From the NCBI RefSeq assembly GCF_018603515.1, contig NZ_JACATN010000004.1:186001-250000 (forward strand): a DNA stretch of 64,000 bases, in the 5' to 3' direction. Shown here one piece after another: positions 17,878-64,000 of this stretch. The notes beneath the pieces were generated by a model that saw only the letters and a program-made list of their open reading frames with translations, did not search any database and had not been told where the DNA came from. This DNA is from Zobellia barbeyronii (GTDB taxonomy: Bacteria; Bacteroidota; Bacteroidia; Flavobacteriales; Flavobacteriaceae). Made by a program: the position numbers and the translations under genes. Every line of letters starts with the position of its first letter. Positions within the stretch are counted from its first letter, which is position 1.

Positions 17878-18272
17878 GGGGCCGACTGGTTTTGACAGCG
17901 AGACCAATGGTATTGTAAGCATGTCGAGCGCTGAGAAACAGCTCGTTAATATCATTTTTCACACTTTTAATTGGCGATAATAACTACGCTCTTGCCGCTT
18001 AATCTGAATTATAGTAAGATTAGCCTCGTCTCTACTAGGTAGAGAAGCGAGATGTTCCTGAATAGCCTCTGTCGACGGCGATTCAATCCGGAGCACCATA
18101 AATGTCGATATAAGGCCATTATTGCTTTGGTAGTGGCACCAAAACTTTAAGAAGCTAAGCGTATATTGGGCCGTTTCCGGTCAGGTATGCGTCGAAAACT
18201 AATCGGAAACTAAACATGTAGAAAGCTTTGTTATTGCTTGTTTGGACGAGGGTTCGAATCCCTCCGGCTCCA
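17878..18272 (+). ncRNA. ssrA: Transfer-messenger RNA
   Basis: The 5' end GGGGCCGACTGG pairs with the 3' CGGCTCC to form the tRNA-like acceptor stem, and the 3' end shows the T-arm consensus GGTTCGAATCCC. The internal reading frame at 17973-18002 encodes G-D-N-N-Y-A-L-A-A followed by TAA, the ribosome-rescue degradation tag. Length is about 395 nt. The terminal CCA is not encoded (sequence reads CTCC-A-CAA). tmRNA frees stalled ribosomes together with SmpB. Confidence 0.95.
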
Positions 18273-18280
18273 CAAACAAA

Positions 18281-50525: not shown

Positions 50526-51494
50526 TTATTCCGCTTTGTTCCAAGTATCTTTTAGGAAAGTCAAATCTTTTTTCATTTTGGCAAAAACCTCATCTTTATC
50601 TATGGTAATTTCCGTAGCGCCATGCTCGGCACCGCCAAGGTCATATTCTAAATGTAGAGATATAGGTACGTTAATTTTGTATTTTTTCAGCAATGAAAAG
50701 TAACGTCCAAAATCTATCATTCCCTCTCCTAGAGGGGTGTTGATTGGTTTCCACTTACCTTCTTCCATTCCCCATTTAAAATCCTTTATAACAATACTTC
50801 TTATGTAGGGTGCGATATAGCGTAAGTCTAATTCCCAACTCATACCGCCTTCCACTACAGCATGCCGTATATCATACTGGCTACCCAAATGTTTGCTATC
50901 CGGAGATGGTAATATAGGAGGTAAATCCCAAATAGGTGCGCCAACATGATTACCAGCATGATTTTGGTAACAGCCTATTAATCCCAATTCTTTATTGGCT
51001 GTTTCCAGTTCTTTAAAAAGTTCACGATACTTTTCCTGACTTTCCTGAATACTTAGCTCTTCTGGATAGGTAAGCCATCCGGTTCTATAATGTGTAATTC
51101 CTAATTTACTAGCCGTTTCCAAAACCTGCCTGTCCAAATCTTCATTTGCATTCAGCACATTGGTTGTCATCATTTTTGACTTTAAACCATATTTCTTCAT
51201 GGCTTCCATAGCCTTTGGTAAATCGCGTTCAACATTTTCTGGCAAGACATGTCCTTTTGGTCTTACCGTTAAATCCAATCCATCAAAACCGATTTCGGCG
51301 GCAGCCTTAGCCATATCATCAAATCCCAAAAATTGTAAGTGTTTTGAAAAAAGATGTACCTGAAGCCCTTCATTAAAAAAGTTAGTAGCTAAAGAAAATG
51401 GGTCTGAAAGTGGAAATAATGGAACTGCCAGCGCTGCAGAACTAGATTTCTTAATAAAATTTCTACGACTGACTTGAGGTTTGTAAATGGCCAT
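50526..51494 (-). CDS. Tat-exported sugar phosphate isomerase/epimerase-like TIM-barrel protein
   Basis: This 322-residue protein begins with a twin-arginine motif S-R-R-N-F-I-K-K followed by SSSAALAVPLFPLS, indicating Tat export. The AP-endonuclease-2-like barrel shows IGFDGLDLTVRPKGHVLP, CYQNHAGNHVGAPIWD, LGSQYDIRHA and SLHLEYDLGG with metal-binding Glu/Asp/His. It is related to hydroxypyruvate isomerases and xylose-isomerase-like proteins. Its start is 66 bp from the bidirectional promoter it shares with the kinase gene. Confidence 0.82.
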   Translation of the reverse strand: MAIYKPQVSRRNFIKKSSSAALAVPLFPLSDPFSLATNFFNEGLQVHLFSKHLQFLGFDDMAKAAAEIGFDGLDLTVRPKGHVLPENVERDLPKAMEAMKKYGLKSKMMTTNVLNANEDLDRQVLETASKLGITHYRTGWLTYPEELSIQESQEKYRELFKELETANKELGLIGCYQNHAGNHVGAPIWDLPPILPSPDSKHLGSQYDIRHAVVEGGMSWELDLRYIAPYIRSIVIKDFKWGMEEGKWKPINTPLGEGMIDFGRYFSLLKKYKINVPISLHLEYDLGGAEHGATEITIDKDEVFAKMKKDLTFLKDTWNKAE

Positions 51495-51532
51495 AATTGG
51501 ATGGTTTTAAAAATGGTTTTAACACTTGAAAT

Positions 51533-51584
51533 TTTGATAACAGTCAAATATAACTATATTTGGTAAACCAATTTGGTAAACCAA
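51533..51584. promoter_or_regulatory. Bidirectional promoter with tandem GntR-type operators
   Basis: On the plus strand TTTG (51533-51536) precedes TATATTTG (51555-51562). A mirrored TATATTTG on the minus strand (51545-51552) makes the palindrome CAAATATA-AC-TATATTTG at 51545-51562. Two copies of TTGGTAAACCAA lie at 51560-51571 and 51573-51584, starting 13 bp apart; the first overlaps the plus -7 element. Together these would let one repressor control the kinase gene and the divergent isomerase-RraA pair. The palindrome resembles hexuronate-regulator operators (TTGGTATACCAA, from memory). Confidence 0.78.
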
Positions 51585-51595
51585 TTATTTAACAG

Positions 51596-52096
51596 ATGAG
51601 TAAAAAAGATAATTTTATAGTTGTTTTAGTGGGCGTTTGCGGAACCGGTAAAAGTGTTGTTGGTGAGAAGGTAGCTAAAAAATTAGACATCCCATTTTTT
51701 GATGCAGATGCACTATTCAATGAACAGCTAATTGCCGATAAGGAAAATACCAATACGGAATCTAACACATGGTTACCAGCTATTACAAGCTTAATTAGTG
51801 AGCAATTCAATAAAGATGGTTGTGTAGTTTCTTGTTCTATTTTAAAAAAAGAGCAACGTTTAGAGCTGGCTAAAAATCTAGATTTAAATATTGACTGGGT
51901 TTTTATGAACGGTACTTATGACGAGGTTAACCAACGTCTAGACAAAGGGCACTCAAACAACCAAACTGAGTCTTCCCTAGAATCGGACTTTGAGCTACTA
52001 GAAATTCCTAAAAGGGCACTAACTGTAGATATTACCCATCCGGAACAAGAAATAGTGGACACCATTTTAAAGTACTTAGCTAGAAAATATGGTTGA
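51596..52096 (+). CDS. Gluconokinase-like P-loop kinase
   Basis: This 166-residue kinase has Walker A GVCGTGKSVVGEK at about residues 13-25, a NMP-binding segment (FFDADALFNEQL), TWLPAITSLI, VVSCSILKKEQR, and MNGTYDEVNQRLDKG followed by a VDITHPEQEIVDTIL end. This is the GntK (gluconokinase) layout. The canonical GVSGSGKS is G-V-C-G-T-G-K-S here. Given the alginate-linked operator, the substrate might be another sugar acid. The gene starts 12 nt after the operator. Confidence 0.82.
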   Translation: MSKKDNFIVVLVGVCGTGKSVVGEKVAKKLDIPFFDADALFNEQLIADKENTNTESNTWLPAITSLISEQFNKDGCVVSCSILKKEQRLELAKNLDLNIDWVFMNGTYDEVNQRLDKGHSNNQTESSLESDFELLEIPKRALTVDITHPEQEIVDTILKYLARKYG

Positions 52097-52152
52097 TACG
52101 TGTTTTTTTTGACACGTTTACACCTTAAATTCAGCATATAGGCTCCCTATAA

Positions 52153-52205
52153 TTTGTTCGGTTAAAAAATATTTCTATTTTTGGTAAACCAAATTGGTTA
52201 ACCAA
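52153..52205 (+). promoter_or_regulatory. Promoter of the PL17 gene with tandem GntR-type operators
   Basis: TTTG at 52153-52156, 19 nt, then TATTTTTG at 52176-52183 matches the consensus. TTGGTAAACCAA at 52181-52192 shares the last bases of the -7 element. A second copy TTGGTTAACCAA lies at 52194-52205, again 13 bp later. Binding would cover the promoter and start site. The start is near 52190, leaving a leader of about 340 nt before PL17. Confidence 0.78.
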
Positions 52206-52530
52206 TTGAATTGTTCAACGTTCAAATCATAGTCTGCCATTTTACTTTATGGTTTACATTATATAGATACAACAGACAATATATTTAAAGATAGCAGAGC
52301 CATTAACATGCAGTTGGTCGTCGGTGAGCCAATTTTGAAAAACAGGAATAAACCCCTGAGTACTTCAGAAAAACAGAGATGATCGGCGACCAAAATTATC
52401 GTGTTAAAAACCAAATAGAACGGCCCTATTTTACTGGTGATTCAGATTACAACTTAAATGCCTATTCTACTTTCAACGTAATAAGCACTAACTAATACAA
52501 TTTAGGCATACTACATAACTCAATTCAAAT
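52206..52530 (+). other. Long structured leader of the PL17 transcript
   Basis: No reading frame is found in this 325-nt stretch. It includes a 12-bp stem of 52314-52325 against 52382-52393 (two G-U pairs) closing a 56-nt loop, inside which CTGA-GTACT-TCAG forms a small hairpin. It could be an RNA regulator, an RNA stability element or a spacer. No known riboswitch family was recognised. Confidence 0.5.
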
Positions 52531-54780
52531 ATGACCAAACATATAAGAGTATTACAAATTTTTATCTGCGTATTGTTAATCTCCTTTAGTGGACATTCAC
52601 AAGACCATCCCAGCTTAATTTTAACCAAAGAAGGCGTTCAAAAGATAAGAGCAGAATTAGGTAACGTTCCTCTTTTTGATGCTACTTTAGAAAAAGTAAA
52701 AGCCGAGGTAGATGCCGAAATAGCATTGGGAATTGAAACCCCAATACCTAAAGATTTTTCTGGTGGATATACACACTCTCGTCACAAACTTAATTTTCAG
52801 ACGCTTCAAAAAGCCGGTGTATTGTATCAGATTTTAGACGATGAAAAATATGCCATATATATTAAAGACATGTTATTTCAATATGAAAGCATGTATAAAG
52901 ATTTACCGGTACACCCGCAAACGCGTTCATACGCTAGAGGAAAGTTATTCTGGCAGTGCCTTAATGATTCCAATTGGTTGGTTTATGTAAGTCAGGCTTA
53001 TGACTGTGTTTATGACTACCTATCTAAAAAAGAACGCAAGCAACTTGAAAAAAATCTTTTCAGACCTTTTGCAGATTTCATATCTATAGAAAACCCTCAA
53101 TTCTACAACCGTGTTCACAACCATAGTACATGGGGTAATGCTGCCGTTGGTATGATCGGGTTGGTAATGAATGATGATGAATTAATCCAAAGAGCATTAT
53201 ACGGGATAGAAGACGACGGATTACCTGTTGGAGCTAAAGACAATGATGGTGGGTTTATAAAAATAGAAGGCCAAGAGGTTGGCTTTCTTGCCAATGTAGA
53301 TGAGCCATTTTCTCCTGATGGTTATTATACCGAAGGACCTTACTACCAAAGATATGCTATGTATCCTTTCTTAATTTTTGCCGAGGCATTGCACAATGTG
53401 AAGCCCGAGCAAAAGATTTTTGAACATAAGGATAGCGTGTTGCTAAAGTCAGTAAACATACTCGTAAATCTTTCTGATGCGGACGGGGATTTTTTCCCTC
53501 TGAACGATGCTCAGAAAGGAATGTCGTACAAATCACCTGACGTAGTCACTGCTCTTGATATTGCATATCATTATGGAGGACACAATCCACAATTATTGAG
53601 TATTGCAGAAGAGCAAGGTAAAGTTTTATTGGATGATTCAGGTCTTGCCGTTGCTATAGGCATTAGAGATGGGAAGGCTGAACCTTTTCAAAAAAAATCA
53701 ATAAACCTAACTGATGGCACCAAGGGCGACGAAGGCGGTGTTGGTATACTTAGGTATGGTAATGAAGATATGACCTTGGTTTTTAAATATGCCGCGCAAG
53801 GTTTAAGCCACGGACATTATGATAAGCTGTCATTTTCGCTTTACGAAAAAGGCACGGAGATATTACAAGACTACGGACTAGCTCGCTTTGTAAATATTGA
53901 GCAAAAAGGTGGTGGTAATTATTTAAAAGAAAATAAGACCTGGGCCAAACAAACAATAGCTCACAATACACTTGTACAAAATGAAACTTCTCATTTTGGC
54001 GGTAAATATGAAGTAGGTAGCAAATTCCATTCAGAGCTTTACTTTTTTGACACTTCCAATCCAGAAGTACAAGTAGTAAGTGCTAAAGAAAAGAACGCAT
54101 ATCCCGGTACGGAAATGCAAAGAACCATGGCACTAATAAAAGCTGATGGTTTTGAAAAACCTTTTTTACTGGATATTTTAAAAGTGGTTTCTACTACTAA
54201 AAATAAATATGACCTTCCCTTCTACTTTAAAGGCCAGGTTATGAAAACTAATTTTGATTTCTCCACACCTAAAAGTTTAGAGACATTGGGTTCTGAACAT
54301 GGATACCAACATCTTTGGGCAGAAGGCACGGGGCAACCTAAAGAAGATAACTCAAAGTTAAGCTGGTTAGAAAACGGGCATTTTTATACATTAACCACTG
54401 CTAGCTTAAAAGATGACCAATTACAATTTGTGCGCATTGGCGCTAACGATCCGGAATTTAACTTAAGAAGAGATGCCGGTCTTGTCATCCGTAGAAAAAA
54501 TACACAGAACACAACATTCGTTTCGGTCGTGGAATCACACGGGCAGTACAGTCCGGTTTCTGAGTTTTCAGTAAACTCTAACAGTGCAATTTCCAAAATA
54601 GAACTTATGGAAGATAACAAAGAGTATACAGCGGTAGTCGTTGAAACAAAGGCTAATGGTAGTCAACTAATGTTGCTGTTGGCCAACGAAGACAAACAAA
54701 AAAATAAAGAACACACCTTAACAATAAAAAATAAGGAGTATAGCTGGACGGGTCCTTATGAATTCGTTAAGATTAACTAA
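52531..54780 (+). CDS. Alginate lyase PL17 (oligoalginate lyase)
   Basis: This 749-residue exported enzyme has a signal peptide (SFSGHSQ) and the PL17 two-domain fold: an N-terminal alpha/alpha toroid (residues about 30-370) and a C-terminal heparinase II/III-like beta-sandwich. Catalytic-type residues occur in VHNHSTWGN (Asn-His), FSPDGYYTEGPYYQRY (Tyr) and AAQGLSHGHYDKLSFSLY (His-Tyr). PL17 enzymes release monomeric unsaturated uronate from alginate oligomers. It sits in an operator-controlled unit of its own, apart from the SusC operon. It likely acts in the periplasm. Confidence 0.92.
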   Translation: MTKHIRVLQIFICVLLISFSGHSQDHPSLILTKEGVQKIRAELGNVPLFDATLEKVKAEVDAEIALGIETPIPKDFSGGYTHSRHKLNFQTLQKAGVLYQILDDEKYAIYIKDMLFQYESMYKDLPVHPQTRSYARGKLFWQCLNDSNWLVYVSQAYDCVYDYLSKKERKQLEKNLFRPFADFISIENPQFYNRVHNHSTWGNAAVGMIGLVMNDDELIQRALYGIEDDGLPVGAKDNDGGFIKIEGQEVGFLANVDEPFSPDGYYTEGPYYQRYAMYPFLIFAEALHNVKPEQKIFEHKDSVLLKSVNILVNLSDADGDFFPLNDAQKGMSYKSPDVVTALDIAYHYGGHNPQLLSIAEEQGKVLLDDSGLAVAIGIRDGKAEPFQKKSINLTDGTKGDEGGVGILRYGNEDMTLVFKYAAQGLSHGHYDKLSFSLYEKGTEILQDYGLARFVNIEQKGGGNYLKENKTWAKQTIAHNTLVQNETSHFGGKYEVGSKFHSELYFFDTSNPEVQVVSAKEKNAYPGTEMQRTMALIKADGFEKPFLLDILKVVSTTKNKYDLPFYFKGQVMKTNFDFSTPKSLETLGSEHGYQHLWAEGTGQPKEDNSKLSWLENGHFYTLTTASLKDDQLQFVRIGANDPEFNLRRDAGLVIRRKNTQNTTFVSVVESHGQYSPVSEFSVNSNSAISKIELMEDNKEYTAVVVETKANGSQLMLLLANEDKQKNKEHTLTIKNKEYSWTGPYEFVKIN

Positions 54781-55120
54781 AAGTAAGCGTATAAAAAGTC
54801 TTGGCGTGCTATCAATAATTTTTATAGAAAACGATATTTGGTTTACCTATGATTAATGGTAGGCGCAAGAAGACTAATTTCTAGAGTAAAACCAAACCTA
54901 TATACCTATAACTTTGTTGGCTTCTAGAACTTTTGAAACTCTAATTTATTCCTTTCAATTCATTCTATAATTTGATTTTCAAATATTTTCCAATTCAGGA
55001 CATGAAAACCAAATTATAGAATTTTATTAGTTACTTCTCTAAGTATTATATACCAAAGCAATATAATTGAGAAAACTATTTTTAACCTCCCGTTATAAGC
55101 TAAGAGAAGTTTTTTTATAC
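54781..55120. other. 340-bp spacer between PL17 and KdgF-like genes
   Basis: No gene is seen. A partial operator-like sequence TTGGTTTACCTA occurs at 54838-54849 (10 of 12 matches), but it is not in front of a gene on either strand. A 16-nt sequence TAAGCGTATAAAAAGT at 54784-54799 recurs at 56062-56077. Confidence 0.45.
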
Positions 55121-55495
55121 TTACTTTTTATCACCAAAATAAGATGGGCCTTCGCCAGTTAAGAAATCTTCTCTTACTGGGCTAAATGTATCAATTAGCT
55201 CTCCTTCTTCTAAGCAAACTGCACTATGCAATAAGTTAGGCTCAATATACACACCGTCTCCTGCTTCAACAATTTGTTTTACTCCATCAATTTCAAATTC
55301 AAATTTACCTGAAACACAGTAGGTAGCTTGTGTGTGAAAATGTTGATGTGGAGCACCTAAAGCACCACTGTCAAATTTCACTCTTACCATCATGATTTGA
55401 TTATCGTAGCCTAAGAATTTTCTTGACACTCCTCCACCAAGCACTTCCCATTCCATGTCTTTTGTGGTGATGTACTTTTCACTAAATCGTTTCAT
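55121..55495 (-). CDS. kdgF: KdgF-like cupin
   Basis: This 124-residue cupin has PHQHFHTQATYCVSGKFEFEI (metal-binding His-x-His and Gln) and PNLLHSAVCLEEGELIDTFSP with the third His and the C-terminal FSPVREDF typical of KdgF. KdgF accelerates linearisation of 4,5-unsaturated uronates to DEH after alginate or pectin lyases act. It is transcribed alone from the opposite strand and lacks the shared operator just upstream. The cupin is complete. Confidence 0.85.
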   Translation of the reverse strand: MKRFSEKYITTKDMEWEVLGGGVSRKFLGYDNQIMMVRVKFDSGALGAPHQHFHTQATYCVSGKFEFEIDGVKQIVEAGDGVYIEPNLLHSAVCLEEGELIDTFSPVREDFLTGEGPSYFGDKK

Positions 55496-56323
55496 TTTTT
55501 GTTTTTAGTTTATAAAAATAATTACCTAAGCAATATAATTTATTTCAAATAATTAGAGAGCTAAAAATTAGAAAATTTACGATTTTAATGCATATGTTTT
55601 GTTATTTTTTTAGGTTGACAGCCAACGGTTTATCTATTTATCTGTGATTAGTAAAGGAGAGTGTATTATATCCATAAAAAGCGTACATAAAACTATCATA
55701 ATTCTACTCTTTTTTGTCATTAAACTACGTCTGAAAAACCTTAGATAAGAATCTACCAATTTAAAATACGGGGAATTTAAAATGACAATTTCCGACGCAA
55801 TAAAAATGCTAAAAAGAGGTAATTAATTTTGTATACCACCATACGAAACTCATGGAATTTCTCAGAAAAAATGAAAACCTTTCTAATGGTGTTTTTAGTG
55901 TTTTCAGATAAGATTTTATCGCTAAGAAATTAATTAAATTCTAATTATAATAGCCATGCCAATAGCTCCATTTCTTTCTGAGCTAACAACAAAAAAATTT
56001 CTTTTTTGCTAATAAAATACGATGTAACCACAATTACTTTAACAATTCATTCACAACCCACTAAGCGTATAAAAAGTAGCTAATGTATGCTCACTCTGCA
56101 GAGAAGAAAACAAAAGAAATCATCAAGACAATAATATGACCAACTTCTAAAAACCCCAATATAATACAGGGACAGCGTAGTTATTAAAACCAAAATAGCT
56201 ATCTCTTAAACTTCGGTACTCTACAATTATCATTTTAGCAAATTGAGTCTCTTCAAAATATTATATGCGCAATAATCAATACCAATTTTCTTAATATTAT
56301 TTTTTTTTAACAAAGTATTAAGT

Positions 56324-56366
56324 TATATTTGGTAAACCAATTTGGTAAACCAGTATGGGTAACCAA
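56324..56366 (+). promoter_or_regulatory. Promoter of the SusC operon with three tandem GntR-type operators
   Basis: TATATTTG at 56324-56331 fits the -7 element; a clear -33 TTTG is not visible. TTGGTAAACCAA starts at 56329, overlapping it. TTGGTAAACCAG follows at 56342 and ATGGGTAACCAA at 56355, each 13 bp later. The third is weaker (10 of 12 against the PL17 copy). Same architecture as upstream of PL17 and the kinase. The leader to susC is about 300 nt. Confidence 0.78.
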
Positions 56367-56435
56367 TTGAAAAAGAGAATTACTAGCTAATATTAATTTA
56401 AGAAATATTTGATGAAAATATAAAGTACTTAAATA

Positions 56436-56466
56436 AAAAAAGGACGGGCGCACACCCATCCTTTTT
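56436..56466 (+). terminator. Hairpin with T-run inside the susC leader
   Basis: AAAAAGGACGGG pairs with CCCATCCTTTTT across CGCACAC, with one C-A mismatch, and ends in a T-run. It lies between the operators and susC, so it would terminate or attenuate the transcript started upstream, or serve a separate leader RNA. A second hairpin, TTACTTC with GAAGTAA, follows at about 56475-56498. Confidence 0.6.
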
Positions 56467-56640
56467 AACTAAAATTACTTCATTCTGAAGGGAAGTAACA
56501 CAACGAACACGTACACTTTACTATACACGCTCATTACAAAAATACAAAATTCAAAAACGTTAATGAGTTACGTGCTATAGTAAGTTGATGATTAAATGGA
56601 ATTCTCGCACAGTTTCATTTAGGCGTCGGGCCTTAAACCG

Positions 56641-59600
56641 ATGAACATTACTAACTTAACTTTAACACAAATGAATTTTAAAAACAAATTAGCACTAATA
56701 CTTGCGCTGTTTATAAACGCCGCAATATTTGCTCAAGACGCGTCTACTATATCGGGTACGATTGTAGATGACGCTAACGTACCAATTCCTGGCGTAAATG
56801 TCGTTATTTCCGGTACCACAACAGGTACTGCAACAGATTTTGACGGACTTTATACTATAGACGCTAATAGTGGCGACGTTCTTCAATTTTCCTATATCGG
56901 TTATGTAACTCAAAGTATAACTGTAGGAGACCAAGAGACTATTAATGTTGTAATGACCGAAGATGCTGCATTACTTGATGAAGTTGTCGTAGTAGGTTAT
57001 GGAACACAAAAAAAATCACACCTAACAGGTTCTATTTCAAAAGTTGTCAATGATGATTTAGGTCAGATAGCTGTATCTAGGGTTGATGAGGCTTTAGTAG
57101 GTCAGGTATCGGGGGTAAATATTCAAGCTACTGATGGTGAAGCCGGTGCTGCACCAACAATTAACATTAGAGGTGTTGGCTCTATGGCAGGTGACTCCAC
57201 TCCATTGGTTGTAGTAGATGGTGTGATTGTAAATGCTGATTTCTTAGGGTCCTTAAATATGAATGATGTAGAATCTTTTGAAATTTTAAAAGATGCTGCT
57301 TCATCTGCAATATATGGTTCTAAAGGTGCTAACGGCATCATTATGATCTCAATGAAAGCTGGAGTTGAAGGAAAGACTAAATTCAACTATAGCACTTTTA
57401 CTGGTTTTAAAGAGGCAAGACATAGTGATTCATATACTTTTTCAATTGAAGACACTGCTGCTGCAGAATTAGCAGCTACTGGTTCTATTTCTGACCGAAC
57501 TGCTTACAAGCAATTAATAGGTATAGATCGTTCTTGGCAAGATGAAATTTTTGATGGAGGTACAATAACCAGTCATTCATTAAGCGCAAGAGGTGGTAAT
57601 TCAAACACTAAATTTAGTACTGCAATTAACTTCTCAAATGATGAAGGTGTACTGTTAACTGATAATTTTAAGAAGTATGGCTTAAGATTAAAAGTAGATA
57701 CTAAGGTTAATGAAAAATTCTCTTTTGGTGCTAGTTTAACTCCTTCATATACTAACAGAAGACGTTTTGATGGTTCTACACATGATATTTTAAGACAAAC
57801 GAACTGGTTACCTGTGTATCATGATACAAATACTATCCAGTATGTGGATAGAGGGGTTTATCCAGATGTTGTTGTGGGAGATTATGCTCTTCAAAGACAT
57901 TTTGATAACTATGACTTATATGGTGATGGCAGTGCTTTAGTAGATATTAGTAATACATCAAACACAAATCCTGCTGCTAAAATTCTAGAAAGAGAGCGTA
58001 GTGACAAAAAATTTAAACTTTTTGGAAGTGTTTATGGTAATTATAATATTACTAAAAACTTAAGTTTTAGAACTACTTTATCTGGATCATATCAAGATAC
58101 GAAAAGAACAAGATGGCAAGGAGTTCTGTCTAACAGAAATGGTGCTTCCGCAGCCTCCATGAATGAAATTACGCAAAGAGAAACATATCTTTTAACAGAT
58201 AACTTCTTTTCTTACAACAACGAGTTTGGAAAGCATGAGATTGGAGTTATTCTAGGGGTAACAGGAGAAAGTAAGAAATCTTTTTATTCTAGTATTTCAG
58301 GTACTGGCTACACATCAGATGCTGTTAAACAAATTACAAATGCCACTGTAATTTCTGGCGCTGATGCGTTTGAATGGGAGAAAAATGGATTGTCTTATGT
58401 TACTAGGCTAAACTATGCGTATGACAATAAATACCTAGCTTCTTTTAGCTATAGAAGAGATGGTAGTTCTATTTTCGGTAATGAATTTAAGTACGGTAAC
58501 TTTATGGCAGCTTCTGTTGGTTGGAATGTTGCCGAAGAAGCTTTTTTAAGAGATAGCGATATTGTAAATAAACTTAAGTTTAGAGCTAGTTACGGTGTTA
58601 CTGGTAACGATTTATTAAATGTAGGTAGTGTTAATCCTGATACCAGTAGTAGTACTAGTTCTTTAAGTACTGGTAACTTACTTGTAGATAACTATCCTTA
58701 TCTAGCATTATTAGGCTCTACTACAGCAGTTGTTGATGGAGGTTTAGAAGCTGGTTTTAATCCATTAAATATTGCTAACCCTGATTTGAAATGGGAGCGT
58801 TTGGTAGAATTTAACCCTGGTATTGATTTTGGATTCTTTAATAATATACTGTCTGGTTCTGTAGATTATTATCAAAGAACTAGTGACCAATTACTTTTGA
58901 ATAACCCTATTTCGGTTACAACTGGTTTTAATAGTGCTTTAGTAAACTTAGGTGAAGTTAAAAATGAAGGTTTCGAAGTTGAGTTAAGAACTAAAAATAT
59001 TAATAAAGAAAATCTTAGATGGAGTTCTTCATTTATTTTTAGTACCAATAAAAACACTTTAGTAGATTTTGCTGATTCTGATGGGCAAATTCAAAATGTT
59101 GATAGTAAAAGAGCTGCAGAATGGGTTAACTTAGAAGGGCAACCTATATCAACTTTTTATGGTTGGGTTGTAGATGAAGATATTCCTTTGGAATACATAA
59201 ACAATCCATATCACCCAATTGGAGGAGAAGCACAAGATGTTTATGTGAAAGATTTAAATGGTGATGGCATTATTGATGACGAAGACAAAGCTGCATTAGG
59301 AGATCCTTATCCAGATTTTGTATGGAGTTTCACAAATGATTTTAAGTTTGGCAATATCGATTTCAGTTTTATGTTCCAAGGTTCTCACGGTGCGGAAGTT
59401 CGTAATATGGGTGACCAATATATCTTTAATCAGTTTAATGGAGGTCAAGATTTCAACCCAGATACTACACCTAATCAAGGTTTTATTAAGGAAAAAATAT
59501 TTACTAATGATATTATTCAAGATGCTTCTTATATAGCACTTCGTAATGTAAATATTGGTTATAATTTTGATAAAGACCTTTTATCTAAATACGGTGTTTC

Positions 59601-59772
59601 TGGATTAAGACTTTATGCTGCAGGACAGAACTTAATGTATAAAACAGCAGATGATTACACTGGTTTCAACCCAGAATCTATTGACCGTACCAGTCCTACT
59701 ACTTATGGATACCAACGTGCGGGTTCTCCAATTTTCAGAACAATATCTGTAGGTTTAAATCTTGATTTCTAA
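56641..59772 (+). CDS. SusC-type TonB-dependent alginate-oligomer receptor
   Basis: This 1043-residue receptor has a signal peptide (the more natural start may be the second ATG at 56671), a CarboxypepD_reg domain (SGTIVDDANVPIPGVNVVISG), a TonB-box/plug region with VVVGYGTQKKSHLTGSIS and a barrel ending LNLDF. The plug carries the SusC signature GANGIIMI. The following susD gene and two PL7 lyase genes assign it to alginate-oligomer import. The operon is susC-susD-PKD-PL7-PL7 with gaps of 8 to 34 nt. Confidence 0.93.
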   Translation: MNITNLTLTQMNFKNKLALILALFINAAIFAQDASTISGTIVDDANVPIPGVNVVISGTTTGTATDFDGLYTIDANSGDVLQFSYIGYVTQSITVGDQETINVVMTEDAALLDEVVVVGYGTQKKSHLTGSISKVVNDDLGQIAVSRVDEALVGQVSGVNIQATDGEAGAAPTINIRGVGSMAGDSTPLVVVDGVIVNADFLGSLNMNDVESFEILKDAASSAIYGSKGANGIIMISMKAGVEGKTKFNYSTFTGFKEARHSDSYTFSIEDTAAAELAATGSISDRTAYKQLIGIDRSWQDEIFDGGTITSHSLSARGGNSNTKFSTAINFSNDEGVLLTDNFKKYGLRLKVDTKVNEKFSFGASLTPSYTNRRRFDGSTHDILRQTNWLPVYHDTNTIQYVDRGVYPDVVVGDYALQRHFDNYDLYGDGSALVDISNTSNTNPAAKILERERSDKKFKLFGSVYGNYNITKNLSFRTTLSGSYQDTKRTRWQGVLSNRNGASAASMNEITQRETYLLTDNFFSYNNEFGKHEIGVILGVTGESKKSFYSSISGTGYTSDAVKQITNATVISGADAFEWEKNGLSYVTRLNYAYDNKYLASFSYRRDGSSIFGNEFKYGNFMAASVGWNVAEEAFLRDSDIVNKLKFRASYGVTGNDLLNVGSVNPDTSSSTSSLSTGNLLVDNYPYLALLGSTTAVVDGGLEAGFNPLNIANPDLKWERLVEFNPGIDFGFFNNILSGSVDYYQRTSDQLLLNNPISVTTGFNSALVNLGEVKNEGFEVELRTKNINKENLRWSSSFIFSTNKNTLVDFADSDGQIQNVDSKRAAEWVNLEGQPISTFYGWVVDEDIPLEYINNPYHPIGGEAQDVYVKDLNGDGIIDDEDKAALGDPYPDFVWSFTNDFKFGNIDFSFMFQGSHGAEVRNMGDQYIFNQFNGGQDFNPDTTPNQGFIKEKIFTNDIIQDASYIALRNVNIGYNFDKDLLSKYGVSGLRLYAAGQNLMYKTADDYTGFNPESIDRTSPTTYGYQRAGSPIFRTISVGLNLDF

Positions 59773-59801: not shown

Positions 59802-61232
59802 ATGAAACAATATAAATATATAACCTTGCTTTTAATAGTAGCTGTATTAGCTTCTTGTCAAAGTGACTTTTTAGAACCAGCACCTTCATCTGGAGTAACT
59901 TCTGCAAATTATTACACAAATGCAGCAGAAGTTGAGACTGCAGTAGTTAATATGTACGATGGTATACAGGGTGTTAATAGCACCAGTTCAGGTGTTAATC
60001 ATGGTGTTATGTACGAATTTTACTTAACTGAAATGCGTAGTGACAACACTAGAACAAAAAGCCAAGAAGGTGAAGCTGCTCAATTTGAATCTTACACAAT
60101 TCAAGCTACTAACGGTATTGTAGCAGATTATTATTCAAGTTTTTACAATGTAATATTTAGAGCTAATGTAGTTTTGGACAATTTAAGCGTAGTGGAAGAT
60201 GCTTCCAAAGCTGTTTCTTTTGAAGCTGAAGCCAAATTTGTAAGAGCTTATGCGTATTTTAACTTAGTACGTTTGTTTGGAGATATACCATTAATTGATG
60301 GTGTAATTACTCCATTGGAAACTGAAGTTCAATTTAAGAGAGTTTCAAGCGCGCAAATTTATGATTTAATAGAAAGCGATTTAACTACTGCTATAGCAGG
60401 TTTGGATAATAGCTTTAAAACAAGAGGTTCTAAGGCAGCAGCACAAGCGTTGTTAGCCAAAGCATATCTTACGCAAGGTGAAAATTATGCTGATGCTCAG
60501 GGTTTGTGTGAAGATATAATGGCATCTGGTTTTGCATTAGAGCCTGATTTTAGTGATGTTTTTTACCAAGAGTTAAATGACGAGATTATTTTTGCTGTTG
60601 GTTATGCTTCTGCATTATCTAGTGACAGCCAACTATTTTCAGCAGAATGGATGAATGGTGTTGGTAGAAGTAGTGGTGTAAATTATGTTACCGCAGATGC
60701 GGTTGCTGCTTTAGATGTTTCTGGAGGAGATAGAACACAATTTTCGTATAGAATAGACCCTAGTCAAACTACACAAAATCAAGTTACTAAGTATTTACCA
60801 AATGGCGAAGACGGTGGAGCTGATGGTAAAACATTTTTATCAGATGCTACTTTAGCTGGAAACGATTGGATTGTACTGCGTTACGCAGATGTTTTATTAA
60901 TGCATGTTGAGGCTATTATGGCTGGTGGTGCAGAGACTTCTAGTTCTCCTGCAGTTGCTTCATTTCAAGCAATTAGAGATAGAGCTGGTTTAACAACTCC
61001 TGTTACTACTCCTATTACTAAAGCTGATTTACTTTTAGAAAGAAGAATGGAACTTGCATTTGAAAACCATAGATTTTTTGATTTAGTACGTTTAGGGGCT
61101 GCAGAATCTACTTTGTCTGCATTTTCAGCAACTAACGGTTTAGGGTATTCAACTTCAGATTTGCTATTACCATTTCCTCAAAGTGAAATAAATTTAAGTA
61201 ATGGGATATTAACTCAAAATCCAGGGTACTAA
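59802..61232 (+). CDS. SusD/RagB-family surface lipoprotein
   Basis: This 476-residue protein has a lipobox (VLASC, Cys19), the SusD TPR-like N-terminal half (EAKFVRAYAYFNLVRLFGDIPLI) and the RagB-type C-terminus (RRMELAFENHRFFDLVRLG). It forms the lid of the SusC transporter and binds alginate oligosaccharide. It lies 29 nt after susC. Confidence 0.93.
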   Translation: MKQYKYITLLLIVAVLASCQSDFLEPAPSSGVTSANYYTNAAEVETAVVNMYDGIQGVNSTSSGVNHGVMYEFYLTEMRSDNTRTKSQEGEAAQFESYTIQATNGIVADYYSSFYNVIFRANVVLDNLSVVEDASKAVSFEAEAKFVRAYAYFNLVRLFGDIPLIDGVITPLETEVQFKRVSSAQIYDLIESDLTTAIAGLDNSFKTRGSKAAAQALLAKAYLTQGENYADAQGLCEDIMASGFALEPDFSDVFYQELNDEIIFAVGYASALSSDSQLFSAEWMNGVGRSSGVNYVTADAVAALDVSGGDRTQFSYRIDPSQTTQNQVTKYLPNGEDGGADGKTFLSDATLAGNDWIVLRYADVLLMHVEAIMAGGAETSSSPAVASFQAIRDRAGLTTPVTTPITKADLLLERRMELAFENHRFFDLVRLGAAESTLSAFSATNGLGYSTSDLLLPFPQSEINLSNGILTQNPGY

Positions 61233-61266: not shown

Positions 61267-62199
61267 ATGGAAAATATAAAATCAATAAATAAACTTATAG
61301 CATCGCTATCTCTGTTGGCAATTGTGTCTTCATGCGACCCGACAATTGACAGTTTAAGTTACGATTTACCAGAAGCTAATTCAAAGGCTGATGAAACACC
61401 TCCAAGTGCTAGTTTTTCCGCAACGGAAACAGAAGATTATTTAACATATACTTTTGGTAACACTTCTTCTAGTGCTACAGCTTATACATGGAGTTATGGA
61501 GATGGTAACGCCTCAGGTGGTGTTGATGGAATGAATACATATTCAACCGTAGGAACTTATATTGTTACGTTAACCGCTTCGGATAATTTAGGAGTAACGA
61601 GTACTTCTACTTTGGAAATTGAAGTTGTTGAGCCAGAAGAACCTGCAGCGATTATACCAGAAATTTTGAATGGAGATTTTGCAAATGGACAGGATGATTG
61701 GAAGATTGCAGATTTTACTGGAGGAACAAGAGATCCTTTTAATGGTAGTAGTGATGGTTCTTTCTTTAATTATGACGGTTCGGATAATGGTTCTAAAACT
61801 GCTGGTGCAAAATGGACACAAGGAACTTCAGCTGGCGAATGGGTAAGTGCTAGTACTAGATATGCATACCAAGCATTAACTGTTACTCCTAATACAGAAT
61901 ATATTTTAGAATATGAATATGCCATAAAAGATGACACGGCTACTGATCCAACAGGAGGAAGAAGAATAGTTGGTGAAATATTGGATGGTCATTTTGCTGA
62001 TGGTGTTGATGCTGTTGCTAGTTCTGAGGCAGGTGCACGTGCAAGTCATGTTGGAACCAATGCTGGTGGAAAAACATCTTTTACTTTAGTAAAAGAACAA
62101 TTCACATCTAATGCTTCTGGTGAAATTTCAATTTGGATATATGGGGTTACACCTGTTGATGCTTATGTAGATAATGTTAAAGTTTACCCAGTAGATTAA
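61267..62199 (+). CDS. PKD-domain lipoprotein, probable surface glycan-binding protein
   Basis: This 310-residue protein has a lipoprotein signal (LLAIVSSC, Cys23), one PKD domain (about residues 42-120: SFSATETEDYLTYTFGNTS, WSYGDGNAS, YSTVGTYIVTLTASD), and a C-terminal beta-sandwich resembling a carbohydrate-binding module (ILNGDFANGQDDWKI through VYPVD). Position third in the operon fits SusE/SusF-like alginate binding. The enzymatic motif is absent. Confidence 0.85.
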   Translation: MENIKSINKLIASLSLLAIVSSCDPTIDSLSYDLPEANSKADETPPSASFSATETEDYLTYTFGNTSSSATAYTWSYGDGNASGGVDGMNTYSTVGTYIVTLTASDNLGVTSTSTLEIEVVEPEEPAAIIPEILNGDFANGQDDWKIADFTGGTRDPFNGSSDGSFFNYDGSDNGSKTAGAKWTQGTSAGEWVSASTRYAYQALTVTPNTEYILEYEYAIKDDTATDPTGGRRIVGEILDGHFADGVDAVASSEAGARASHVGTNAGGKTSFTLVKEQFTSNASGEISIWIYGVTPVDAYVDNVKVYPVD

Positions 62200-62207
62200 T
62201 TTTAGAA

Positions 62208-63110
62208 ATGACTAGTTTTCTAAAATATAAATTATCTGTCATAGTAATTATACTTGTATCTGTGAACGTGTCTTGTCAAACGACAAGGCACGGAACAGAT
62301 ACAAAAATTAAAAAAGAAAAGTCTAAAAAAAAGAAGGTTAAACTTTCTAAAATAGATCTTAGTTATTGGAAAGTTACCATACCAGAGGGTACAGGAAAAG
62401 GAGGAGCAATTAGTGTTGAGCCACCAGAGATTTTAAATTATGCTACAAATAAGACTTTAAAACCTTATATGTATAATGACTCTACAAAAGGAGCGCTAAC
62501 ATTTTATGCCTACCCTACCTCAGCTACTACAGCCAATACAAAATATTCCAGATCAGAACTTAGAGAACAAATGGTTCCAGGTGACGATAATACAAATTGG
62601 ACTTTTAAACAAGGAGGATCATTAAAAGCAAAACTTGCTGTTGATGAAGTTTCTCGTGATGAAAATGGTAAATATCATAAAATTATCATTTTGCAAATAC
62701 ATGGACGTCTAACAAATGAACAACGAGATTTAATTGGCCAGAAAGACAATAACGCCCCTCCAGTATTAAAGATTTACTGGCAGAATGGTAAGGTTAGAGT
62801 TAAGACCAAAAAACTAAAATACGCAGGTGCAAATTCAATAGGAATATTACATGAAGAGGCTTGGACAGATGATGAAGGATTCAATTTTGAAGAAGAAGTA
62901 GGTTTTAGAAAATTTCAGATTGAAGTGAAAGTTTCCGATGGAAAAATGGTGGTTTCATTAAACAAAACTGAATTCGCCGTTTATGATGATTTCAATATGA
63001 AACGTTGGGGCATTTTCGAAAATTACTTCAAAGCAGGTAATTATTTTCAAAGCAGGGATGAAGGTTCTTTTGCTAAAGTTAGTTTTTATGAACTTGAAGT
63101 AAACCATTAA
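62208..63110 (+). CDS. Alginate lyase PL7, predicted lipoprotein or exported
   Basis: This 300-residue enzyme has an N-terminal hydrophobic stretch ending NVSC, a non-standard lipobox, and a Lys-rich linker before the PL7 jelly-roll. PL7 blocks are intact: YSRSELREQM (catalytic Arg), IILQIHGRL (Gln-His), and YFKAGNYFQ with the catalytic Tyr. It endolytically cleaves alginate by beta-elimination. Its linker is basic, whereas the next paralogue has an acidic one, so the two may be placed or targeted differently. Gap to the PKD gene is 8 nt. Confidence 0.93.
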   Translation: MTSFLKYKLSVIVIILVSVNVSCQTTRHGTDTKIKKEKSKKKKVKLSKIDLSYWKVTIPEGTGKGGAISVEPPEILNYATNKTLKPYMYNDSTKGALTFYAYPTSATTANTKYSRSELREQMVPGDDNTNWTFKQGGSLKAKLAVDEVSRDENGKYHKIIILQIHGRLTNEQRDLIGQKDNNAPPVLKIYWQNGKVRVKTKKLKYAGANSIGILHEEAWTDDEGFNFEEEVGFRKFQIEVKVSDGKMVVSLNKTEFAVYDDFNMKRWGIFENYFKAGNYFQSRDEGSFAKVSFYELEVNH

Positions 63111-63121
63111 TAACAATACTT

Positions 63122-64000
63122 ATGAATTTCAACAGTGTTCAATATTTTTTTAAACAAGCAATTATTAAAAATTGCTTGTTTCTTATTGTACTGTTCAGTT
63201 TATGGAGTTGCGACAATTCTTCTGATGCTATTGAAAAAGAGGTTGAAGAGGAAATGGTTGAACAAGAAGAGATTCAAGAAGAAGTTGAAATTATAGAAGA
63301 GACACCTGAAGAGGTTGTTGAAGAAACATTTTTATTACCAAATATTGATTTAAGTAATTGGAAAGTTACCCTCCCAACTGGTAGTCCAGATGAAGTAGAG
63401 CCACCAGAAATATCTGACTACGCTACTGATGATCGCTTACTACCATATATGTATAATGACTCAACAGATGGAGCACTGGTTTTTTATACATCGCCAGGTT
63501 CATCAACCAACAATTCTTCTTACTCGCGAACAGAGCTGAGAGAGCAACTCGTTCCAGGAAGTAATAGCACAAACTGGACTTTTACCGAAGGTGGAACTAT
63601 GAAAGGAACTTTGGCCGTTGATGAAATTTCAAAAGATGCTGAAGGTAAATATCACCGTACCATAATTATGCAAATACACGGTAGACTTACTAATGCCCAG
63701 CGAGATTTAATAGAAGAAGATGATAATAATGCGCCACCAATTTTAAAAATTTATTGGCAGAATGGAAAAATCAGGGTATTAACCAAAGTGCTTAATGACC
63801 TCACTGCATCTGATGAAGAAATACTACATACGGATGCCTGGAGTGATAATGACGGCTATACTTTTTCAGAAGAAATTGGAACTAACAAATTCATTTTAGA
63901 AATAATTGCTTCAGAAGGTAGACTGGAAATCATTTTGAATGAAACAGAGTCCATTATTTACGAAGATATTCATATGGAAAAATGGGGCGTTTTCGAAAAT
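63122..64000 (+). CDS. Alginate lyase PL7 lipoprotein, partial (window end)
   Basis: The frame runs from the ATG at 63122 to the window edge (293 codons seen), so the last part of the PL7 domain is missing. It has a lipoprotein signal (LFSLWSC), followed by a long acidic Glu/Val-rich linker (about residues 35-80) typical of outer-membrane display, then YSRTELREQL, IIMQIHGRL and a PL7 core. It is a clear paralogue of the previous gene and 11 nt after it. Probably the surface-exposed endolyase. Confidence 0.9.
   Translation, partial: MNFNSVQYFFKQAIIKNCLFLIVLFSLWSCDNSSDAIEKEVEEEMVEQEEIQEEVEIIEETPEEVVEETFLLPNIDLSNWKVTLPTGSPDEVEPPEISDYATDDRLLPYMYNDSTDGALVFYTSPGSSTNNSSYSRTELREQLVPGSNSTNWTFTEGGTMKGTLAVDEISKDAEGKYHRTIIMQIHGRLTNAQRDLIEEDDNNAPPILKIYWQNGKIRVLTKVLNDLTASDEEILHTDAWSDNDGYTFSEEIGTNKFILEIIASEGRLEIILNETESIIYEDIHMEKWGVFEN

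What the first reader, a model, noticed from the sequence alone, without database searches (positions are those of the whole stretch)
51533..56366. Three alginate-locus promoters share a -7 element fused to tandem 13-bp-phased GntR-like operators
Seen in sequence: TTGGT-N2-ACCAA palindromes at 51560, 51573, 52181, 52194, 56329, 56342 and (weaker) 56355, always 13 bp apart, each first copy sharing its TTG with the preceding TAnnTTTG. They sit before a gluconokinase-like gene, PL17 and SusC. Established knowledge: FadR/UxuR-type GntR proteins bind TTGGT..ACCAA palindromes. Inference: one repressor, probably encoded outside the window, represses all three units and is released by an alginate-derived uronate. 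The tandem 13-bp phasing, instead of a single palindrome, is unusual.
Basis: partly seen in the sequence, partly recalled or inferred. Interest (0 to 1): 0.82.

Follow-up and report, generated by a model that had tools for sequence, protein, structure and literature searches.

The report
Alginate repressor operators plus antisense RNA
A seaweed-degrading marine bacterium appears to keep its alginate genes off with paired repressor sites built into their promoters, a switch already described in its close relatives, and the main uptake gene also seems to carry a conserved antisense RNA as a second lock.

Summary
TTGGT-N2-ACCAA palindromes stand 13 bp apart at 51560/51573, 52181/52194 and 56329/56342/(56355), each first copy fused to a flavobacterial -7 box. 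At zero mismatch the tandem occurs at 8 places in the 4.98-Mb genome, before PL17, PL6 (two), PL7, SusC (two), a small kinase and an NRAMP-type transporter. In relatives the 13-bp phasing and fused -7 are the rule. Two FadR-type GntR paralogues, 90% identical, begin 0.3 and 10.7 kb past the window end. This matches the AusR alginate regulon of Zobellia, reported to bind single, double or triple operators: real, and essentially known.

The SusC leader led further. It carries a conserved two-hairpin element (56435-56507) that reads best as a ~97-nt antisense RNA ending in a terminator. Of 40 hits in 199 Flavobacteriaceae genomes, 38 (36 genomes) lie just downstream of an AusR-type tandem. It resembles the DonS antisense RNAs of Bacteroides PULs; I found no description of it in Rfam or in my searches. 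There are no expression data, and part of the strand evidence is equivocal.

The parts
51555..51562 (+). -7 box TATATTTG of the kinase promoter, fused to operator 1
   Evidence: sequence
51560..51571 (+). AusR-type operator 1 before the gluconokinase-like gene
   Evidence: exact TTGGTNNACCAA
51573..51584 (+). operator 2, 13 bp on
   Evidence: exact
51545..51552 (-). possible divergent -7 box (TATATTTG on minus) for the TIM-barrel gene 50526-51494, next to operator 1
51596..52096 (+). 166-aa gluconokinase/shikimate-kinase-like P-loop kinase
   Evidence: SKI 2e-7; GntK-type models match below their cut-offs
52176..52183 (+). -7 box TATTTTTG of the PL17 promoter
52181..52192 (+). operator 1 before PL17
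   Evidence: exact
52194..52205 (+). operator 2 before PL17
   Evidence: exact
52531..54780 (+). PL17-type oligoalginate lyase
   Evidence: Hepar_II_III_C and Alginate_lyase; NF042990 687 bits, below its 1400 cut-off
56324..56331 (+). -7 box TATATTTG of the SusC promoter
56329..56340 (+). operator 1 before SusC (predicted -7 to +5)
   Evidence: exact; -7 box position taken from PMC9723704
56342..56353 (+). operator 2 before SusC
   Evidence: 1 mismatch
56355..56366 (+). operator 3 before SusC
   Evidence: 2 mismatches; third copies also seen in relatives
56435..56507 (-). conserved two-hairpin RNA element (H2, then terminator-like hairpin H1 and U tract)
   Evidence: model R1 90 bits, E 3.8e-15 (the window sequence is one of the 19 in the model); terminator called on minus only
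56436..56532 (-). predicted ~97-nt antisense RNA against the susC leader
   Evidence: -7 box plus terminator; no transcript data
56537..56544 (-). -7 box TATTTTTG of the predicted antisense RNA
   Evidence: such a box lies at a similar place in 30 of 38 loci
56641..59772 (+). SusC-like TonB-dependent transporter (start codon as listed by the ORF tool)
59802..61232 (+). SusD-like protein
61267..62199 (+). PKD-domain protein
62208..63110 (+). PL7-type alginate lyase (Alginate_lyase2)

Best explanation
The sites are operators of an AusR-type repressor (GntR family, FadR subfamily with an FCD effector domain), encoded twice in the same alginate locus just past the window end. With TAnnTTTG at -12 to -5 (published for F. 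psychrophilum), operator 1 covers about -7 to +5 and operator 2 about +7 to +18. Dimers side by side would sit on the -7 box and the start site and block transcription of the kinase, PL17 and SusC-SusD-PKD-PL7 units. Alginate breakdown products would release them. On the SusC unit I infer a second lock: a ~97-nt RNA made on the opposite strand inside the ~275-nt susC leader, from its own -7 box at 56537-56544 to a terminator at 56437-56466. It would pair with the leader and damp leaky susC transcripts. Shown here: operators, phasing, fused -7 boxes, regulator genes, genes behind the operators, conserved hairpins and conserved antisense -7 box. Inferred: binding, repression, effector, extent of the operons, transcription of the antisense RNA and its action.
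For: Tandem at 8 places only: 4 before lyases, 2 before SusC of this locus, 1 before the kinase, 1 before NRAMP-PMI. Two GntR genes in the locus, FCD shown for one, the other 90% identical. Fused -7 in 54 of 59 tandem clusters by script, three of the five misses being wrong-strand readings. Tandems in other genomes stand mostly before alginate-type or SusC-type genes (24 of 30 ORFs; 27 with the kinase, PfkB and NRAMP genes). AusR reported to bind single, double or triple operators and duplicated in some Zobellia. Antisense RNA: model R1 finds 2 places in the genome below E 1e-3, both susC leaders of this locus; 40 hits in 38 of 199 family genomes, 38 of the 40 with a tandem upstream. L078 and L081, not used in the model, score 76 bits. 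Stems 97.0% paired read on minus, 90.6% on plus; 53 G-U cells on minus against 5 on plus in 43 sequences. Antisense -7 box in 30 of 38 loci against 3 for the reversed pattern. Terminator called on minus only.
Against: No binding, transcript or start-site data. No operator with up to 3 mismatches lies within 120 nt before the first regulator gene, and 15 of 24 homologous genes have none with at most 1 mismatch within 90 nt. The loop-closing position of H1, left out of my stem, is C-A on minus (U-G on plus) in 31 of 43 sequences; counted as a pair it makes the G-U tally 56 to 36. The two strands fold about equally well (mean -20.5 on minus, -20.6 on plus; z -4.56 and -4.13). 8 of 38 loci lack an exact antisense -7 box, the second SusC of this genome among them. 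Some susC leaders behind tandems lack the element or hold only a part (L055, L064, L069, L077). By my tally of handles G000-G198, 46 genomes have an exact tandem, but only 34 of these have a model hit with a tandem; 11 have none and G121 a chance hit; the sets of the two scans are assumed to be the same genomes.
Confidence: 0.85

Rival explanations
1. The susC leader element works on the mRNA (plus) strand, as an attenuator or riboswitch-like leader, and is no antisense RNA.
For: The hairpins also fold on plus (mean -20.6 kcal/mol, z -4.13); a short T tract follows H1 on plus; the loop-closing C-A is U-G on plus in 31 of 43; loops are conserved in sequence, which a pure antisense would not need.
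Against: Stem pairing 90.6% on plus against 97.0% on minus; terminator called on minus only; an antisense -7 box at a similar distance in 30 of 38.
Confidence: 0.22
2. The tandem sites serve another uronate regulator of the FadR/UxuR kind, not the AusR paralogues of this locus.
For: Recalled: UxuR/ExuR operators look like TTGGTnnACCAA. The genome has four further GntR-domain genes. The first regulator gene has no operator close upstream.
Against: The two best-scoring GntR genes of the genome lie in this locus, one with an operator-like site (1 mismatch) 32 bp before its start; 9 of 24 homologous genes have an operator with at most 1 mismatch within 90 nt upstream; AusR is reported to do this job in Zobellia.
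Confidence: 0.05
3. The tandem sites are a chance or repeat-derived pattern without function.
For: Single palindromes are near chance (34 against 26), and the tandem is too once 3 mismatches are allowed.
Against: The exact tandem has no match in the own-genome control, sits before alginate-type genes, and is fused to the -7 box across the family.
Confidence: 0.01

Closest known systems
AusR alginate regulon of Zobellia galactanivorans (Dudek et al. 2020, NAR 48:7786; paper not held, known here only from passages of PMC7874173, PMC8286568 and PMC8073546)
   Same: GntR-family repressor encoded in the alginate PUL; single, double or triple operator copies at promoters; most alginate-use genes repressed; AusR duplication in some Zobellia
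   Different: Here a second SusCD and a PL6 in the locus, and an NRAMP-PMI unit with an operator on another contig. I could not check which of these the paper covers.
DonS family of PUL-associated cis-antisense RNAs in Bacteroides (Cao et al. 2016, not seen; known from passages of PMC7366714, PMC10994844 and PMC11697453)
   Same: Short antisense RNA at a susC homologue; DonS family 78-128 nt, predicted here 80-103 nt (97 in the window)
   Different: Marine Flavobacteriaceae, found at alginate-locus susC, strongly conserved sequence and terminator, paired with a GntR operator promoter; no Rfam match at gathering score; no experiment; not compared with DonS in sequence
UxuR/ExuR/FadR-type GntR operators (recalled)
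   Same: Palindrome TTGGT/ACCAA and FadR-subfamily regulator
   Different: Tandem 13-bp arrays fused to a TAnnTTTG box

Membership tests
AusR regulon | GntR-family regulator with FCD domain encoded in the alginate PUL | tested here: met
   PF00392 and PF07729 in the gene at C32:260705; 90% identical paralogue at C32:250283
AusR regulon | Single, double or triple operators at promoters of alginate genes | tested here: met
   double and triple; single before 9 of 24 ausR homologues:
AusR regulon | Regulator orthologous to Z. galactanivorans AusR | tested here: inconclusive
   78-91% identity to regulators of other Zobellia and of Pseudozobellia; the Z. galactanivorans protein itself was not compared
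AusR regulon | Binding to the operator and release by alginate products | not testable with these tools
   needs gel shift and effector assay
DonS-like PUL antisense RNA | Encoded opposite the 5' region of a susC homologue | tested here: met
   a SusC-type ORF (judged by eye from its first residues) follows in 30 of 31 hits and 5 of the other 9
DonS-like PUL antisense RNA | Length 78-128 nt with own promoter and terminator | tested here: met
   predicted 80-103 nt in 30 of 38 loci; terminator on minus in the window; prediction only
DonS-like PUL antisense RNA | Transcribed, and represses its susC | not testable with these tools
   no expression data
Any Rfam family | Match at gathering score | tested here: not met
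   only tmRNA in the whole window; the best sub-threshold match over the leader had 23.4 bits against a gathering score of 58.7
Sense-strand attenuator or riboswitch | Pairs better preserved on the sense strand | tested here: not met
   90.6% on plus against 97.0% on minus, with the loop-closing exception

The most novel reading that the evidence does not exclude
Marine Flavobacteriaceae put two locks on one alginate susC: an AusR roadblock over the start site and, a little further on, a dedicated antisense RNA with its own promoter and terminator, conserved over 30 or more genera and reserved for this one PUL. Its nearly invariant UACUUCCC stretch would suggest that it also meets a protein or other RNAs, not only its own leader.
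Probability: 0.45. Interest if true: 0.7.

Novelty: new variant of a known kind. Interest (0 to 1): 0.52.

Why it matters
The operator part shows that a published regulatory code (AusR sites, here as pairs fused to the -7 box) can be read from sequence and used to find alginate regulon genes, including an NRAMP-type transporter and a small kinase of unknown role. If the antisense RNA is made, it extends PUL antisense control from gut Bacteroides to marine alginate degraders, as a defined RNA of one or two copies per genome, shared by many genera, that can be deleted and tested. It may bear on how the alginate uptake gene is kept silent and switched on quickly.

Tried and rejected
A third hairpin around the antisense -7 box, striking by eye in Zobellia, is weak across loci (sense strand mean z -1.38, below -2 in 10 of 31; antisense -1.02, 5 of 31): dropped. 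Trans targets of the conserved loop: its 12-nt complement with at most 1 mismatch occurs 22 times in the genome, the two susC leaders included, against 31 for the reversed control, so no support. Known RNA family: none at gathering score. Model hits outside the family: of 296 order genomes, many of them of the same family, one hit (L134) lay in another family; it has no tandem and is taken as chance. Of 296 phylum genomes 5 had hits, all 5 in the same family. Two family hits (L140, L143) have no tandem and are counted as misses. The generic sigma-70 scan is not suited to this phylum. Scans of over 40 genomes use stricter filters and may lose weak hits.

Rows left out: L064, L069 and L077 (of 22 leaders) were left out of alignments A2/A3 because their element is partial; therefore rest on chosen sequences. 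Near-identical rows were dropped before the count of 43. Of the 32 downstream ORFs listed, 30 were scanned: the short ORF L053:1979-2290 and L069 were left out. L063 gave no ORF. PL numbers are my reading of Pfam names. One search did not list all its matches, and only 30 loci were taken from it.

Full report
Observation. A lone palindrome is near chance in this genome (34 sites against 26 in the reversed control). The tandem at zero mismatch is found at 8 places and the reversed control gives none (own row). The 8 places precede: the 166-aa kinase, PL17 and SusC in the window; a second SusC (L026); two PL6-type genes, one followed by a PL7-type gene (L027); a CBM6-PL7 gene (L032, triple array); and an NRAMP-type transporter followed by a mannose-6-phosphate-isomerase-like gene (L033).

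Regulator. The window is G000:C32:186001-250000. Two GntR genes start at C32:250283 and C32:260705, the two strongest of six GntR matches in the genome, 90% identical to each other, the second shown to carry an FCD domain. Residues D151, H155, H200 and H222 line up with like residues of two solved FCD regulators (alignments); that such residues bind metal is recalled. The second gene has an operator-like site with 1 mismatch 32 bp before its start; the first has none with up to 3 mismatches within 120 nt; 9 of 24 homologous genes have one with at most 1 mismatch within 90 nt. The locus goes on with PL6, NRAMP, SusCD, MFS, SDR, LacI-like, KDG-kinase-like and KDPG-aldolase genes (LacI, the second SusC and SusD by eye). 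The organism is most likely a Zobellia: the nearest named regulators are from Z. amurskyensis (91%) and Z. uliginosa (88% and 85%) (which may leave out the window's own genome), and the gene content fits a locus type described for that genus (passage).

Conservation. In 25 loci around regulator homologues the close spacings are 13 (23), 26 (3), 14 (1) and 27 (1). Of 59 tandem clusters, 54 have the exact -7 box fused at the same offset by script. Of the five misses, window 51560, L040:1922 and L041:2119 were read on the wrong strand by the script, L092 has the box at an extra upstream copy, and the PL7 array of L032 is a true near-miss, TAATATTG. The tandem pattern is present in 93 of 397 family genomes. 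Of 30 downstream ORFs scanned from the loci of that search, 6 are PL17-type, 4 PL6-type, 3 PL7-type, 11 SusC-type, and 1 each SKI-type kinase, PfkB and NRAMP; 3 got no alginate assignment.

Mechanism. In F. psychrophilum the TAnnTTTG box lies at -12 to -5 (passage). By that ruler operator 1 spans -7 to +5 and operator 2 +7 to +18, so a bound repressor covers the start site. This step is inference. The published system matches: AusR, a GntR repressor of Z. galactanivorans, binds promoters through single, double or triple operator copies, and breakdown products stop it from binding (passages). I could not read the original paper.

The susC leader. Between operator 3 and the listed start codon lie about 275 nt. 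In the window, some 70 nt after the operators, comes a block better conserved than its surroundings: hairpin H1 with a flanking A run, then hairpin H2. It is present in both SusC leaders of this genome and in leaders of Pseudozobellia, Wenyingzhuangia and Maribacter relatives. Covariance model R1, built from 19 sequences, finds in this genome only these two places below E 1e-3; the next hit, E 0.004, is the same place on the other strand. In 199 family genomes it gives 40 hits in 38 genomes at E up to 0.001. I inspected all 40: 38, in 36 genomes, have a 13-bp tandem of operator-like copies (at most 2 mismatches each) upstream with a fused -7 box (31 of 31; 7 of 9); the other two, L140 and L143, are probably chance terminators. 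A SusC-type ORF, judged by eye, follows in 30 of the first 31 and in 5 of the last 9. The converse does not hold: by my tally of handles G000-G198, 12 of 46 genomes with an exact tandem have no such hit.

Which strand. Read on minus, 97.0% of stem cells pair; on plus, 90.6%. Over 43 sequences the stems hold 53 G-U cells on minus and 5 on plus, in 15 against 5 positions. Against this, the position closing the H1 loop, which I left out of the stem, is C-A on minus (U-G on plus) in 31 of 43; counting it gives 56 to 36. Many of these cells are shared by descent. The two strands fold about equally well. The terminator scan of the window calls the hairpin on minus only, where a longer T run follows. 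An antisense -7 box lies 10-40 nt beyond H2 in 30 of 38 loci, against 3 for the reversed pattern and a mean of 1.5 in upstream windows of the same size. Together they predict an RNA of 80-103 nt (97 in the window, 56532 to 56436). I put the antisense reading at about 0.7.

What is known of such RNAs. Bacteroides PULs have cis-antisense RNAs of 78-128 nt at susC homologues (DonS family), with repression shown for one (passages). The F. psychrophilum transcriptome paper lists antisense RNAs and names the Bacteroides case as a starting point for work in flavobacteria (section read). Searches for antisense or small RNAs with susC, alginate, flavobacteria, Zobellia or DonS (the last noisy, 15 of 259 listed) showed no listing that describes one at an alginate susC; most subscription papers are not in that library. 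Rfam has no match at gathering score.

Verdict. Its added value is the route to the leader RNA, a conserved and testable second element in the same promoter-leader unit.

Noticed in passing
window 51494-51560: A second possible -7 box on the minus strand (51545-51552) stands back to back with the kinase promoter, so the divergent TIM-barrel gene (50526-51494) and the RraA-like gene after it may share the AusR operators; Pseudozobellia L075 has a similar-looking divergent gene there, L054 showed none.
   Followed up: partly
L033:4623-7197 (C36): AusR tandem before an NRAMP-type transporter and a mannose-6-phosphate-isomerase-like gene; another NRAMP-type gene lies in the alginate locus (L026:3510-4784) and one behind a tandem in another genome (L049). 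Role in alginate use unclear.
   Followed up: partly
window 51596-52096: The 166-aa gluconokinase-like kinase has a SKI-type counterpart behind a tandem in L054 and a 165-aa ORF in L075, but scores well below the gluconokinase models; substrate unknown.
   Followed up: partly
L071:14857-14894: A triple operator with fused -7 box stands about 280 nt before a regulator gene with neither susC nor a model hit between, as if a second SusC unit had been lost.
   Followed up: no
window 55121-55495: Small cupin protein on the minus strand between PL17 and SusC, perhaps KdgF-like (recalled); the region before it shows only a site with 2 mismatches at 55828.
   Followed up: no
window 63123-64000 and L026:1-87: A second PL7-like gene (by eye, not scanned) runs across the window end, just before the first regulator gene.
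   Followed up: no
L097 and the other antisense-element loci: The antisense H2 is nearly invariant in sequence (UUACUUCCCU, each position 41 to 43 of 43 rows), more than pairing with its own leader would require.
   Followed up: partly
window 17878-18275: tmRNA gene (Rfam).
   Followed up: no
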